Shown: piece by piece, positions 48,706 to 59,271 of the stretch | Layout: each line of letters starts with the position of its first letter | How positions within the stretch are numbered: position 1 is the stretch's first letter | Source of the DNA: Pyrobaculum sp. 3827-6 | GTDB lineage: Archaea > Thermoproteota > Thermoprotei > Thermoproteales > Thermoproteaceae | DNA length: 64,000 nt | Assembly: GCF_025641885.1 (NCBI RefSeq) | Contig: NZ_JAOTQN010000001.1 | Span: 930,001-994,000 of the forward strand | Direction: 5' to 3' | Position numbers and translations under genes: made by a program | The notes under the pieces: generated by a model | Seen by the model: the letters and a program-made list of their open reading frames with translations, nothing else | Told to the model about the DNA's origin: nothing | The model's database searches: none

Positions 48706-48740
48706 TGCGGCGGCCGGGATTCGAACCCGGAATCAACGGG
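48706..48740 (-). tRNA. tRNA-Gly 3' fragment (A), truncated
   Basis: Read on the minus strand this holds the 3' strand of an anticodon stem (cccgt), variable region tgatt, a perfect T arm (ccggg-ttcgaat-cccgg) and the acceptor strand ccgccgc plus discriminator a; no CCA. It matches the 3' end of the complete tRNA-Gly at 51913-52034 but lacks the T-stem intron. No 5' half with gcggcgg is found upstream within a normal or intron-extended distance, so it is a tRNA fragment rather than a gene. It lies four bases after the adh stop. Confidence 0.65.
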
Positions 48741-48977
48741 TTGCTCGGGCCGTAGCGCGACTCTGCCTCCCGGCGTACCTGCATGAGGCGGGGCAGGTAG
48801 CGGCTATGTCTTCATAGAAGTTGAATAACCCCTTTTTCCAAGTTAAACTTATTGGTGAGGCGGCCTTGACCAAGCTGGATGGGCCGGCCATAGACGGACG
48901 TCCGCGCCTTAACAAAGCTCGGGGTCCAGCCAGTTGACCCGCGTGGGCGGCCTCGACGCGGGGGCCGACCTGCGGGG
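48741..48977. other. Low-coding region after tRNA fragment
   Basis: About 240 bp without a convincing gene. On the minus strand a stretch around 48790-48850 could encode TWKKGLFNFYEDIAATCPASC before changing frame, so it may be the debris of a gene whose 3' end ran into the tRNA fragment. Nothing else is seen. Confidence 0.3.
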
Positions 48978-49323
48978 CTAGATGTAGAGTATATAGTATT
49001 CCGTTTTCTCGAACTTGCCCGTGATCGGATCTACGCAGAGCCTCAGCGTCTTGAGGGTGTCCACGGCTATGGAGGGGGTCGCCCCCTCGAACGCGGCAAC
49101 CCTCACGGAGCCCCGCCTCCCTCTATCTCGGCCTCAGCCACATACACCTTCGCGGTCACCTTACCGCCGTCCAGCCTCAGCTCGACCGTAAACGGCGTCT
49201 TTATGAGCTCCTCGGCCGCGTCGATGGAGAGCACCGTGAAGGTGGACCAGTCTCTATCAATATCTCGTCGTACTCCACCTCACCCCTCCCCCTAAACTTT
49301 GCCCTAGTGGATACATGTCTCAT
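48978..49323 (-). pseudogene. Retropepsin-like (clan AA) aspartic protease, two frameshifts
   Basis: Joining three frames gives about 115 residues of a clan AA aspartic-protease-like protein: MRHVSTRAKFRGRGEVEYDEILIETG, then STFTVLSIDAAEELIKTP through YVAEAEIEG, then GSVRVAAFEGATPS to a stop at 48978. The first frameshift falls right after the active-site loop (near 49248) and the second near 49115. The catalytic DTG appears as ETG. Two frameshifts plus loss of the catalytic Asp indicate a dead gene. It lies downstream of atpI on the same strand, in the tRNA-fragment region. Confidence 0.6.
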
Positions 49324-49394
49324 GCCAAGAGGTGCATGCTGGTTAAATGCTTCGCCACCTACGCCGATGCCGGCGCTCGGAGGCCTTGTATATG

Positions 49395-51374
49395 TCAAGT
49401 CCCCTCGGGCTCCCGCTGGCCTAGCTTGAAGGGCTCGAAGAGCCTTCCAGAGCCTCTGTAGAACTTTGAGAGGGTCTCGTAGTATATCAGCCTAAGCGAC
49501 TGTATGGCCGTCAAGAAGCCTTCGAACCCGGCTATTAGAAACTGCGACAGAGCGTACAGCGCGAAACCTGCCGGCAGATCCAGCAGGCTACGCGCGGCCG
49601 AGGTAAATGTGCTGTGGGCTATGTAGACTATGGCGAGCCGCGCGAAGCTGAGGACGTTGGCGGTCGCCGCTATGAAGGCCTCTATGGTCGAGAAGACCAG
49701 CTCGCCCCCTATCTCGCGCAGGTAGACGGCGCCGTATCTCAAGGCGAGGGCAACGATGCCCGAGGCGAGCCACGAGACGCCGGCCAGCAAGACGCAGAGA
49801 TCGGCGAGGGCGTTGCAGGCCTTGGCCGCGACATCTATGAAAGGCCTTCCGTAGAGCAACCGCGGCAGGTCTATGTACCTCAGAAGAGATGCGCCGATCG
49901 ATAGATAAATGACTGTTATGGGGGCGTGGAGGGCGGCAGCCAGGACGGCGTCGCCAGACAGCACAGACTGGGCCGTCTTGAGGACGAACGCCAGCGCCAT
50001 GAGATAGTAGCCGAACAACATGGCAGCCGCCATGCCCGTCATGTAGTCCAGCTCCTGCCCCACGCCCCATAGCTTCAGGCCGAAGAAGTCGCCGTAGTAG
50101 AGCCCGAAGGCTAAGGTCGCAGCCGACGTGGTCAGCCAGATGACGCCCCAGTCCCTCCTGCCTATCCTCAACAAGACCAGCGCCAGCATGAGGAGAAGTA
50201 GGCCGTAGCCCACGTCGCCGAACATCCAGCCGTAGAAGAAGGGAAAGAGGAAAGCCACCAGCGGAAGCGGCGATATCTCGCCCGGGGCGGGAGGCCCGTA
50301 CATGTAGAGTATCCTGGAGAACGCCTTTATCGGGTAGGGCCACCTCTCACTCGTCGGCGGCGTCTTTATCAGCTTGTAGGCGGCGCCCATCTTGTAGGCG
50401 ACTAGCCGCCGGGGCACGTAGATCCCGCCCAGGGCGCCCGCGAGTATCTCGTCCAGCTCGGCCGCGTCCCTCTCCATTACATAGAAAGACACTGCGGCGG
50501 TCCCGGCGTGGTCCTCCCACCTCGCGTCGCCAAACGCCGAATAGGTTCGGTATATCTCATACATCTCAGCCAGGGACCTCCTCAGCCTCCCCAGCGCCTC
50601 GTCTACTCTCGCGATGGTCTGTCTCAGCAACTCCCTCGCCGTATGTATATCCAATAGGTACTCCCGCGGCACCTCGACCCCTCCGTACCTCTCCACGCCG
50701 CCTGCGACTATGGCCACCTTAAAGCCGCCGAACTCGAACAGCTGGTGGGGCTCCGGTATGGCCTCGCGGGGCTCCAACACCACGCGGTAGCCCTCTGGCA
50801 CTCTGAGGTGCGAGTAGCCGCTACTCTCCAGCCGCTCGAGGAAGGACACGAGGGCGCCGAGCCTCCTCAGCTCCTCCTCCCTGGCGGCCACCTCAGCGGC
50901 CACGGCCGCGAAGGACCTGCCGGTGTCTGGCCCCTCGGAGTACGCAGACCTCCCGTAGATATCCAGGACGTCCTTCGCAACTCTATACGCACCCACGAGA
51001 TCCTCGGCGGCCGTCCCCCTCTCGGCGAGACAGCCCAGTATCGCCCGCTTGGCGGCCTCTCTCCCCACGACGTCGTCCAGCCTGTAGCCGGCCACGCACG
51101 CCCTTAGCGCGTCTAGGGCCTCCCTCAAGGCTTCGGACAACTTTCCAGCGCGGGGCGGCCTTGCCTCCGCCTCTAAGCCGAGGCGTTCCAAGAGCCGCCC
51201 AAGCGCCTCCACGTCCGCCGCGAGCGGCGGGACAGGCGGTTGCGAGAAGTAGGGCGGCCTCTCCTCGAAAACTGCAATGCCGGCCAGGCCCAGCCTGAAT
51301 ATCACGTCGAGTACTACGTCTGGAGGCGCCGCGAATCTGACAAACAGCAAACGCTCAAAAGGCACATAAGTCAT
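49395..51374 (-). CDS. atpI: A-type ATP synthase subunit I (a subunit)
   Basis: Membrane stator subunit that forms the proton half-channels with the c-ring of the archaeal A1Ao ATP synthase. The N-terminal 340 residues are a cytoplasmic coiled-coil arm (AAEVAAREEELRRLGALVSFLERL, TIARVDEALGRLRRSL). The C-terminal half has seven or eight membrane helices, including FPFFYGWMFGDVGYGLLLLM and FSTIEAFIAATANVLSFARLAIVYIAHS, the region with the essential arginine. Length 659 is normal. No other atp genes adjoin. A GTG three codons later (51365) fits the upstream TATA box better than the ATG. Confidence 0.94.
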   Translation of the reverse strand: MTYVPFERLLFVRFAAPPDVVLDVIFRLGLAGIAVFEERPPYFSQPPVPPLAADVEALGRLLERLGLEAEARPPRAGKLSEALREALDALRACVAGYRLDDVVGREAAKRAILGCLAERGTAAEDLVGAYRVAKDVLDIYGRSAYSEGPDTGRSFAAVAAEVAAREEELRRLGALVSFLERLESSGYSHLRVPEGYRVVLEPREAIPEPHQLFEFGGFKVAIVAGGVERYGGVEVPREYLLDIHTARELLRQTIARVDEALGRLRRSLAEMYEIYRTYSAFGDARWEDHAGTAAVSFYVMERDAAELDEILAGALGGIYVPRRLVAYKMGAAYKLIKTPPTSERWPYPIKAFSRILYMYGPPAPGEISPLPLVAFLFPFFYGWMFGDVGYGLLLLMLALVLLRIGRRDWGVIWLTTSAATLAFGLYYGDFFGLKLWGVGQELDYMTGMAAAMLFGYYLMALAFVLKTAQSVLSGDAVLAAALHAPITVIYLSIGASLLRYIDLPRLLYGRPFIDVAAKACNALADLCVLLAGVSWLASGIVALALRYGAVYLREIGGELVFSTIEAFIAATANVLSFARLAIVYIAHSTFTSAARSLLDLPAGFALYALSQFLIAGFEGFLTAIQSLRLIYYETLSKFYRGSGRLFEPFKLGQREPEGT

Positions 51375-51674
51375 GGAGCCTGCCTAATATAAGCTTAGTG
51401 ACCACCGTCAAGATCTTGCTGAGCAACTTATATACGGCGACCTTTGACCAGAAGCTTGCGCGCTATCGACAATATGGAGCCGCCCTAGGCCAACGCCGGA
51501 TGAAGCAGAGTATAGAAAAAAGATGCCTAAAAGGCTCGTGAACCTCGACGATGCGGCTCCAGAAGCCGAGGGAAGCGGGCCCTACGTGCCGGTGGAGAAG
51601 TAGCTAGTAGAGGCAACAAGTAGCTACGCTAAGGCGCCGTCGCGGAGAGTAAAACTTACTGCATCCATTTGGCA
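51375..51674. other. Intergenic with one small ORF remnant
   Basis: About 300 bp before the tRNA-Leu-like element. A TATA-like cttatatac lies near 51428-51436 on the plus strand. After it an open frame to 51603 could encode SRPRPTPDEAEYRKKMPKRL and ends GPYVPVEK, but no start codon fits the promoter, so it is probably the end of a lost gene. Nothing else is seen. Confidence 0.3.
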
Positions 51675-51760
51675 GTGGGGGGTGCCCGAGCCAGGCCAAA
51701 GGGGCAGGGTTCAGGCACCTGTGGCGTAGGTCTGTGCGGTTTCAAATTCCCCGCACCTCT
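51675..51760 (+). tRNA. tRNA-Leu(CAG)-like, degenerate
   Basis: The core looks like a class II tRNA-Leu: T8-G9, a D arm tgcccgagccaggccaaaggggc, anticodon loop ttcaggc (CAG), a long variable arm, and ttcaaat in the T loop. However, the T stem reads gcggt/tcccc with a T-T mismatch next to the loop, and the 5' gggggg strand does not pair with the 3' gcacctc strand. A typical acceptor/T-stem has therefore been lost. A gtaaaactta box lies about 22 bp upstream. Probably a pseudo-tRNA. Confidence 0.45.
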
Positions 51761-51912
51761 ACGTCAATGCTGTTGATAACTCAAGGGGGGCCGGCTCGTG
51801 GTTTAATGACGGGATGATGAAAAATACAGTAGACACGTCCCCACTACGCGACTACGTCCGTCAAGACCTCACATGGCGATAAAGCATAAAAACACCCACT
51901 TCCCGGGGAGTG
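51761..51912. other. Spacer with tRNA-Gly promoter
   Basis: No gene seen. The element gcataaaaac at 51884-51893 is 25 bp before the tRNA-Gly 5' end and is the likely TATA box. A gatgatga motif near 51814 looks like a C box but has no D box partner. Confidence 0.45.
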
Positions 51913-52034
51913 GCGGCGGTAGTCTAGCCTGGTTTAGGATGGCGGCCTTCCACGCCTCTGCGAGGAAAGCCGTTGATCCCGTCAAGCCCCCGCGGGGGGC
52001 TTGGGATAAGGTTCGAATCCCGGCCGCCGCACCA
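51913..52034 (+). tRNA. tRNA-Gly(TCC) with two introns, CCA encoded
   Basis: Acceptor gcggcgg (51913-51919) pairs perfectly with ccgccgc (52024-52030), followed by discriminator a and an encoded CCA. D arm has A14, G18G19 and A21. Anticodon stem gcggc/gccgt holds loop c-t-TCC-a-n. A 15-base intron lies at the usual 37/38 position (about 51953-51967). The T stem is broken after position 51 by a 28-base intron (51982-52009) which itself can form an aagcccc/ggggctt hairpin; removal restores ccggg-ttcgaat-cccgg. Non-canonical introns are known in Pyrobaculum tRNAs. TATA box 25 bp upstream. Confidence 0.88.
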
Positions 52035-58682: not shown

Positions 58683-58757
58683 TGGTGCCACCGCCGGGAT
58701 TTGAACCCGGGACCGCCCGGTCTTCAGCCGGGCGCTCTCCCGCTGAGCTACGGTGGC
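58683..58757 (-). tRNA. tRNA-Phe(GAA), CCA encoded, no intron
   Basis: On the minus strand: acceptor gccaccg pairs with cggtggc, T8-A9, D arm gctcagcgggagagc, anticodon stem cccgg/ccggg with loop ctgaaga (GAA), variable ggtc, T arm cccggg ttcaaat cccgg, discriminator a and encoded CCA (58683-58685). All stems pair. A cttaaaaatc box is about 25 bp upstream (58776-58787). Confidence 0.95.
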
Positions 58758-58951: not shown

Positions 58952-59026
58952 TGCGGCGGCCGGGGTTTGAACCTTATCTCAAGCACCCCGCGGGGGGTTG
59001 ACGGGATCTACGGCTCCGAAGGCCGC
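58952..59026 (-). tRNA. tRNA 3' two-thirds fragment (B) with T-stem intron
   Basis: Minus-strand sequence from nucleotide 27 to the discriminator of a tRNA: anticodon stem gcggc/gccgt, loop cttcgga (TCG at 34-36), variable agatc, T stem ccg...gg with ttcaaac loop and cccgg, acceptor ccgccgc, a. A 28-base insert (58974-59001) sits at exactly the same T-stem position as in tRNA-Gly 51913 and matches its intron in 25 of 28 bases. The D arm and 5' acceptor strand are missing. A cataaaaacac box, like that of tRNA-Gly, lies upstream at about 59055-59065. No CCA. Confidence 0.6.
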
Positions 59027-59061
59027 TTTGCTGTGCTGTTTTACTAATGTTTTAGGTGTTT

Positions 59062-59271
59062 TTATGTCTTTTTCTGGCATATTCCCAGGGCGGCGCACAC
59101 CGGCTCAAGGCGCATAAATGCCTCCAGGGCGCCTCCTTTAAGCAGAATCTGCCTCTCTTTTCTGCTCCACCCCTCCACTCCCAGGATCTTCAGTATGGCG
59201 GCGGTTCTTTGGTGGTCCGCCTCGCGCCTAGTTCTAGGCGAATTAGAGTCAGCATAGCGCCGTCTGTATTG
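59062..59271 (-). pseudogene. C-terminal remnant of an unknown gene
   Basis: An open minus-strand frame of 69 codons without a start codon encodes a basic protein end: RTAAILKILGVEGWSRKERQ, then ILLKGGALEAFMRLEPVCAALG and ends GICQKKT. The composition is protein-like and helical, unlike the antisense frames here. The frame is closed upstream by TAA at 59272-59274. Its family was not recognised. The stop overlaps the promoter-like box of tRNA fragment B. Confidence 0.35.

What the first reader, a model, noticed from the sequence alone, without database searches (positions are those of the whole stretch)
58952..59066. Promoter-bearing tRNA 3' fragment that shares the T-stem intron of tRNA-Gly
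Seen: a minus-strand tRNA piece from nucleotide 27 to the discriminator, with an intact anticodon arm and a 28-base insert at the same T-stem position as in the tRNA-Gly at 51913 (25 of 28 bases identical). The 5' third is missing, yet a cataaaaacac box almost equal to that of tRNA-Gly lies about 30 bp upstream. Known: split tRNA genes with separately transcribed halves exist in Caldivirga, in the same order. Inference: this is either a pseudogene left by recombination or a separately transcribed 3' piece. The anticodon loop reads TCG, not TCC, so it is not a simple copy of tRNA-Gly.
Basis: partly seen in the sequence, partly recalled or inferred. Interest (0 to 1): 0.68.

Follow-up and report, generated by a model that had tools for sequence, protein, structure and literature searches.

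The report
Dead chimeric tRNA behind a repeat
The tRNA piece is a decayed hybrid of two different tRNA genes (arginine front, glycine back) left behind by DNA recombination next to a repeated "PaRep2b" gene in a Pyrobaculum archaeon; it is a scar rather than half of a split tRNA, but comparison with a sister species shows such scars sit where tRNA genes have just gained introns.

Summary
In detail: window 58952-59026 (minus) holds a tRNA 3' portion with a 25/28-identical T-stem intron, and a TATA box lies 30 bp upstream. It is a chimera. Promoter and anticodon arm match tRNA-Arg(TCG), which exists intact elsewhere; the 3' half with its intron matches tRNA-Gly(TCC) at 51913. The acceptor 5' strand and D-arm are lost, the intron's splicing helix is broken, and no matching 5' piece was found. 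The TATA box overlaps the stop codon of a truncated PaRep2b gene. Nine of 46 tRNA genes in this genome have a PaRep2b 3' end in the same place. The nearest relative lacks the whole block. Verdict: a pseudogene made by recombination, not a split tRNA.

Comparison with that relative shows more. Five tRNAs differ in T-stem-intron presence; in all five, synteny breaks in or right after the tRNA 3' half. In at least three, the old intronless 3' end remains as a relic. In three of the relative's four gains, the intron-bearing tRNA is followed by a convergent ORF (or its remnant) with a LAGLIDADG-like motif. A mobile element that brings both intron and ORF is plausible but unproven.

The parts
58952..59026 (-). 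chimeric tRNA relic: anticodon arm 59010-59026 (Arg TCG type), variable region/CCG 59002-59009, T-stem intron 58974-59001, T-arm 3' part 58960-58973, acceptor 3' strand and A73 58952-58959 (Gly type)
   Evidence: best match score 52 against noise of at most 17.5
59027..59039 (-). 13-nt stretch (acagcacagcaaa) where tRNA-Arg(TCG) has its acceptor 5' strand and D-arm; deletion scar
   Evidence: alignment; complement not enriched in the genome
59040..59066 (-). tRNA-type promoter; TATA box cataaaaacac at 59056-59066; near-copy of the tRNA-Arg(TCG) promoter
59062..59228 (-). 3'-terminal remnant of a PaRep2b gene (READHQRTAAILKILGVEGWSRKERQILLKGGALEAFMRLEPVCAALGICQKKT*); its TAA stop (59062-59064) lies in the TATA box; starts exactly where synteny with G004 ends
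   Evidence: the remnant alone is below Pfam detection, assigned by similarity to full copies
58683..58757 (-). intact tRNA-Phe, orientation flipped relative to its neighbours compared with G002, G004 and G006
51913..52031 (+). tRNA-Gly(TCC) with canonical and T-stem introns, likely donor of the 3' half; its G004 counterpart lacks the T-stem intron
48706..48756 (-). second chimeric relic: 48706-48735 = intronless 3' end of the original tRNA-Gly(TCC); 48736-48756 = 3' intron/exon stretch of a tRNA-Lys
48757..51912 (.). block absent from G004; carries an extra V-type ATPase subunit I paralogue (49395-51374 -)

Best explanation
The piece is a dead, chimeric tRNA gene. A tRNA-Arg(TCG)-like gene standing behind a PaRep2b gene recombined, somewhere around the variable loop, with the intron-bearing 3' half of a tRNA-Gly(TCC)-like gene. 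The product had an Arg 5' acceptor strand facing a Gly 3' strand, so it could not fold; it lost its acceptor 5' strand and D-arm by deletion and is decaying. It came to its present site as part of a ~0.8-kb block that replaced the ancestral tRNA-Phe locus. Shown here: the chimera, the deletion, the broken intron helix, the intact Arg(TCG) and Gly(TCC) genes elsewhere, and absence from the sister genome. Inferred: the order of events, homologous recombination between tRNA genes and PaRep2b copies as the cause, and lack of function.
For: The promoter matches tRNA-Arg(TCG) (score 27 versus 13.5 for Gly) and the anticodon arm is identical to it; the 3' part is 91% identical to tRNA-Gly(TCC) over 66 nt. 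Intact Arg(TCG), and all five Arg isoacceptors by eye, are present. No 5' partner was found. The intron helix energy falls from -21.2 to -10.4 kcal/mol when the functional fold is imposed, and the functional fold is no longer the minimum. The block is absent in G004, where 96-97% identical synteny resumes exactly at 59229. Two sister relics have a similar make-up: G000:C1:1337530-1337670 (Thr(GGT) promoter and front with a 13-nt D-arm deletion, fused to a Pro(TGG) 3' half with T-stem intron) and window 48706-48756 (Lys/Gly). Recombination inside tRNA 3' halves is frequent between the two genomes.
Against: The promoter is well preserved, so the locus may still be transcribed. The anticodon arm has no mutation. 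Two relics with the same layout (promoter, D-arm deletion, intron-bearing 3' half) could be read as a functional class. No expression data were available.
Confidence: 0.88

Rival explanations
1. It is the 3' half of a split tRNA, transcribed from its own promoter and trans-spliced to a 5' half encoded elsewhere, as in Caldivirga.
For: Own TATA box; anticodon arm and 3' half in order; split tRNAs exist in the same order (PMC4390854).
Against: Intact Arg(TCG) and Gly(TCC) exist; no separate GCGGCGG 5' half with a tRNA D-arm; leader short, AT-rich and without a partner above control; no trans-spliced tRNA in the five Pyrobaculum genomes surveyed in PMC3218864.
Confidence: 0.03
2. It is the attachment-site scar of an integrative element that used a tRNA 3' half as target, the rest of the element being lost.
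For: True 3'-half scars of this type exist: Ser(GCT) fragment at G000:C1:726583, a direct repeat 8 kb from the intact gene; Arg(CCT), Thr(TGT) and Asn loci in G004.
Against: The piece also carries a tRNA promoter and an Arg anticodon arm, which an attachment site would not; tRNA-Gly 7 kb away is an inverted, not a direct, repeat; no integrase or ORF remnant beside it.
Confidence: 0.12
3. It is transcribed as a small non-coding RNA with a new, non-tRNA role.
For: Near-intact tRNA promoter; a second relic with similar layout behind another PaRep2b gene.
Against: Not conserved in the nearest relative; its fold is disrupted; no Rfam match.
Confidence: 0.05

Closest known systems
tRNA gene disruption by a mobile element, Caldiarchaeum tRNA-Thr(GGU) (Sugahara et al. 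2012, PMC3293823)
   Same: tRNA fragment left next to an inserted sequence, with intron gain in the replaced tRNA within a short time
   Different: Here the element is not a recombinase-coding 1.8-kb sequence; PaRep2b genes and a different ORF family flank the tRNAs; several tRNA species are hit; the window fragment is a chimera of two tRNAs
[quoted passage not shown] 2010, as cited in PMC4090602 and PMC4033280)
   Same: Near-identical introns at the same non-canonical position in different tRNAs
   Different: PMC4090602 calls the mechanism unknown; here five recent gains or losses between two sister genomes coincide with breaks in the tRNA 3' half, and intronless relics survive
Split and tri-split tRNAs of Caldivirga maquilingensis (reviewed in PMC4390854)
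   Same: Separate locus with own promoter carrying anticodon arm and 3' half
   Different: No 5' partner, no complementary leader, and the tRNA is redundant here
PaREP2b repeats of Pyrobaculum (called putative transposons in PMC3558965)
   Same: The gene remnant upstream of the fragment belongs to PF07775 relatives
   Different: I found no mention in PMC3558965 of these genes lying at tRNA TATA boxes (passages read)

Membership tests
split tRNA 3' half | own promoter upstream of the 3' half | tested here: met
   TATA box at 59056-59066; activity untested
split tRNA 3' half | a 5' half elsewhere with matching acceptor strand | tested here: not met
   only the three intact Gly genes; looser pattern not above its control, 152 versus 221
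split tRNA 3' half | GC-rich leader complementary to the trailer of the 5' half, forming a BHB motif | tested here: not met
   13-nt AT-rich leader; complement found 3 times elsewhere with 1 mismatch, control 4 in all
split tRNA 3' half | supplies a tRNA otherwise missing | tested here: not met
   intact Arg(TCG) and Gly(TCC)
split tRNA 3' half | trans-spliced mature tRNA in the cell | not testable with these tools
   needs RNA sequencing
tRNA pseudogene | clear tRNA homology with loss of essential parts | tested here: met
   acceptor 5' strand and D-arm missing
tRNA pseudogene | intact functional copies of the parents in the same genome | tested here: met
integrase attachment site in a tRNA gene | 3' fragment as a direct repeat of an intact tRNA with an element between | tested here: not met
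   tRNA-Gly(TCC) is on the opposite strand and in a different syntenic block
PaRep2b (PF07775) | profile match over the curated cut-off | tested here: inconclusive
   remnant alone has no hit; full-length relatives with the same C-terminus pass
LAGLIDADG homing endonuclease (for PaRep2b and the A3 ORF family) | significant LAGLIDADG profile match and motif | tested here: inconclusive
   PF14528 E 3.2e-6 over cut-off for one PaRep2b ORF, others weak; A3 family motif LLTWxLGDG, best profile PF14527 E 0.035; no PDB match

The most novel reading that the evidence does not exclude
In this Pyrobaculum clade, T-stem tRNA introns spread with a partner gene: a ~440-485-aa LAGLIDADG-like protein encoded immediately 3' of, and convergent with, the intron-bearing tRNA. 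It would cut intronless tRNA genes in the T-arm. Repair from an intron-bearing donor would then copy intron, tRNA 3' half and partner gene together, leaving the old 3' half as a relic. PaRep2b genes may be a second tRNA-targeting family that inserts at tRNA TATA boxes. Chimeric relics such as the one at 58952-59026 would be by-products.
Probability: 0.27. Interest if true: 0.82.

Novelty: new variant of a known kind. Interest (0 to 1): 0.5.

Why it matters
The fragment itself is a scar. It points to two sister genomes in which tRNA introns have just been gained and the pre-intron 3' ends still lie beside the new genes. That makes the unknown mechanism of tRNA intron transposition in Thermoproteales directly testable, and it offers two candidate agents: the PaRep2b genes and the ORF family next to the tRNAs.

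Tried and rejected
Split tRNA: rejected (and intact Arg(TCG)). A direct-repeat integrated element between tRNA-Gly and the fragment: rejected, because the copies are inverted. PaRep2b as the general driver of T-stem introns: weakened, since G003 has such introns without PaRep2b, and PaRep2b copies in G006 and G008 are not next to detected tRNAs (tRNA detection in G008 incomplete). tRNA relics behind most other PaRep2b copies: not above noise. Remnants of the A3 ORF family in the window: none. Relatives of that ORF in plasmid, phage and viral collections: none. Fisher tests used assumed denominators and are not relied on. Genome-contig scans found no relative of the flanking 155-aa ORF or of PaRep2b.

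Full report
WHAT WAS CHECKED. On the minus strand the window carries at 59026-58952 a tRNA part that runs from nt 27 to the discriminator. It reads GCGGC-CTTCGGA-GCCGT-AGATC-CCG-[28-nt insert]-GG-TTCAAAC-CCCGG-CCGCCGC-A. The insert is at the same place (after nt 51) as in tRNA-Gly(TCC) at 51913-52031 and 25 of 28 bases agree. A box cataaaaacac (59056-59066) lies 30 bp upstream. The similarity is far above chance: score 52 against a noise ceiling of 17.5.

ORGANISM. The window is G000:C1:930001-994000. A genome of the same genus (G002) has a contig of 2,436,033 bp, the length given for the Pyrobaculum oguniense chromosome in PMC3558965, so the window is taken to be Pyrobaculum. tRNA identities below were read by eye from the anticodon loops.

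THE PIECE IS A CHIMERA. An intact tRNA-Arg(TCG) sits at G000:C5:7888-7962. Its promoter (cataaaaacacccaatacattagtaaa) is nearly that of the fragment (cataaaaacacctaaaacattagtaaa); the local score is 27, against 13.5 for the tRNA-Gly promoter. The anticodon arm GCGGCCTTCGGAGCCGTAG is identical to that of tRNA-Arg(TCG). From the variable loop on, the piece follows tRNA-Gly(TCC) (91% over 66 nt), including the Gly acceptor strand CCGCCGCA. Between promoter and anticodon arm, 13 nt replace the acceptor 5' strand and D-arm of tRNA-Arg. Imposing the fold of the functional intron gives -10.4 kcal/mol for the fragment and -21.2 for tRNA-Gly, and the fragment's minimum-energy fold no longer has the intron helix.

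NO SPLIT TRNA. The only 5' halves with GCGGCGG and a Gly D-arm belong to the three intact Gly genes. A looser 5'-half pattern is less common than its backwards control (152 versus 221). The complement of the leader occurs elsewhere only with one mismatch, at the control's frequency. Chan et al. report no trans-spliced tRNA in five Pyrobaculum genomes (PMC3218864).

THE PROMOTER BELONGS TO A REPEAT. The 170 bp before the fragment (59062-59228) match many places in G000 and G004 at 66-86% identity. They are the 3' ends of PaRep2b genes (PF07775). The PaRep2b stop codon TAA falls in the TATA box. A PaRep2b C-terminus lies within 110 nt upstream of 9 of 46 tRNA genes in G000 (scores 44-125; shuffles at most 35, distant controls at most 26). 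In G000, 9 of 16 PaRep2b copies, and in G004 4 of 17, have a tRNA within 400 nt downstream (binomial 3e-15 and 7e-6). This count is slightly biased because the query included promoter sequence, and the copy lists are not exhaustive. In G002, three of about thirteen copies end beside a tRNA, two of them facing it. Filled and empty sites between G000 and G004 (Arg(CCT), Val(GAC), Thr(CGT)) put the PaRep2b insertion at the TATA box.

LOCAL REARRANGEMENT. G004 is 95-97% identical to G000 on both sides of the locus. Synteny stops at 59229 on one side and 58446 on the other; the block in between, with PaRep2b remnant, fragment and tRNA-Phe, replaces a 200-bp G004 stretch with tRNA-Phe in the other orientation. 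G002 and G006 share the G004 arrangement. Seven kb away, the tRNA-Gly(TCC) locus also differs. G004 has a tRNA-Gly without the T-stem intron. G000 keeps only its 3' end (48706-48735), now fused to a tRNA-Lys stretch; then comes a block with an extra V-ATPase subunit I paralogue (39% to the core copy), then the T-intron-bearing tRNA-Gly in the opposite orientation.

A SECOND CHIMERA OF THE SAME BUILD. G000:C1:1337530-1337670, also behind PaRep2b, has the promoter and front of tRNA-Thr(GGT) with a 13-nt deletion in the D-arm and the 3' half of tRNA-Pro(TGG) with T-stem intron (61 of 63 nt). A run of N lies next to it, so assembly error cannot be excluded there.

WHERE THE EVIDENCE LED. T-stem intron presence differs between G000 and G004 for five tRNAs: Arg(CCT), Thr(TGT), Asn(GTT) and Gln(TTG) have it in G004, Gly(TCC) in G000. 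In all five, synteny breaks in or right after the tRNA 3' half, against 10 of 38 other tRNAs with data (Fisher p about 0.0035, computed with 27 instead of 28 unbroken controls). Old intronless 3' ends remain at Gly (48706), Arg(CCT) (G004 375600) and Thr(TGT) (G004 ~1036415). At Asn a 4.35-kb insert is flanked by a repeated 20-bp tRNA 3' end, which at the far side is fused to a 5'-truncated tRNA-Met.

A CANDIDATE PARTNER GENE. Directly behind and convergent with the intron-bearing Arg(CCT) and Thr(TGT) of G004 and Arg(GCG) of both genomes lies an ORF of 440-444 aa (49-66% identical across tRNA loci) with the motif LLTWxLGDG; a 17-residue remnant of its C-terminus (E 0.01) lies behind Asn. A distant copy faces an initiator-type tRNA-Met without T-stem intron. 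In G015, another genus, the same tRNA-Thr(TGT) with the near-identical intron is followed by a 90%-identical ORF. The shared stretch (2.1 kb at 88% DNA identity plus 0.5 kb at 79%) begins at the tRNA and ends, in G004, at the intronless relic. G000, far closer to G004, lacks it. This fits a transferred insertion, but LAGLIDADG membership is only suggested and PDB profile searches gave nothing.

CONCLUSION. The finding is a recombination scar, an Arg/Gly chimeric tRNA pseudogene behind a PaRep2b remnant. The process behind such scars resembles the Caldiarchaeum model of Sugahara et al. (PMC3293823) and may explain intron transposition in Thermoproteales, whose mechanism PMC4090602 calls unknown.

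Noticed in passing
L186:11960-13291 (-), L176:9987-11306 (-), L206:5350-6678 (-), L215:5154-6485 (+), L184:7705-9159 (+), L238:6070-7401 (-): Family of 440-485-aa ORFs with a LAGLIDADG-like motif, encoded just 3' of and convergent with tRNA genes, mostly those with a T-stem intron; no Pfam family found
   Followed up: partly
9 of 46 tRNA genes in G000; e.g. G000:C5:7701-7884, C1:191165-191335, C1:1313712-1313882: PaRep2b genes end in the TATA box of tRNA genes, the stop codon overlapping the box; filled and empty sites exist between G000 and G004
   Followed up: yes
L164:414-14312 (-) (G004:C1:1203413-1217311) and similar: Open frames of 4,400-4,700 aa ending in PaRep2b; no Pfam domain found in the one scanned
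   Followed up: partly
G000:C1:726583-726602 (-) and 734698-734782 (-): 3' fragment of tRNA-Ser(GCT) as a direct repeat 8 kb from the intact gene, as expected for an integrated element
   Followed up: partly
G000:C1:912718-912810 and 915107-915199: tRNA-Thr(GGT) duplicated around a PaRep2b gene; the second copy has a mismatched acceptor 5' strand
   Followed up: partly
G000:C1:1313732-1332627: Segment inverted relative to G004, with PaRep2b copies in inverted orientation near both ends
   Followed up: no
window 49395-51374: Second V-type ATPase subunit I gene (39% to the core copy), absent as an extra copy in G002, G004 and G006
   Followed up: partly
G004:C1:566121-566226: 5'-truncated tRNA-Met with T-stem intron fused to the tRNA-Asn 3' flank: another 5'-less chimeric tRNA
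   Followed up: partly
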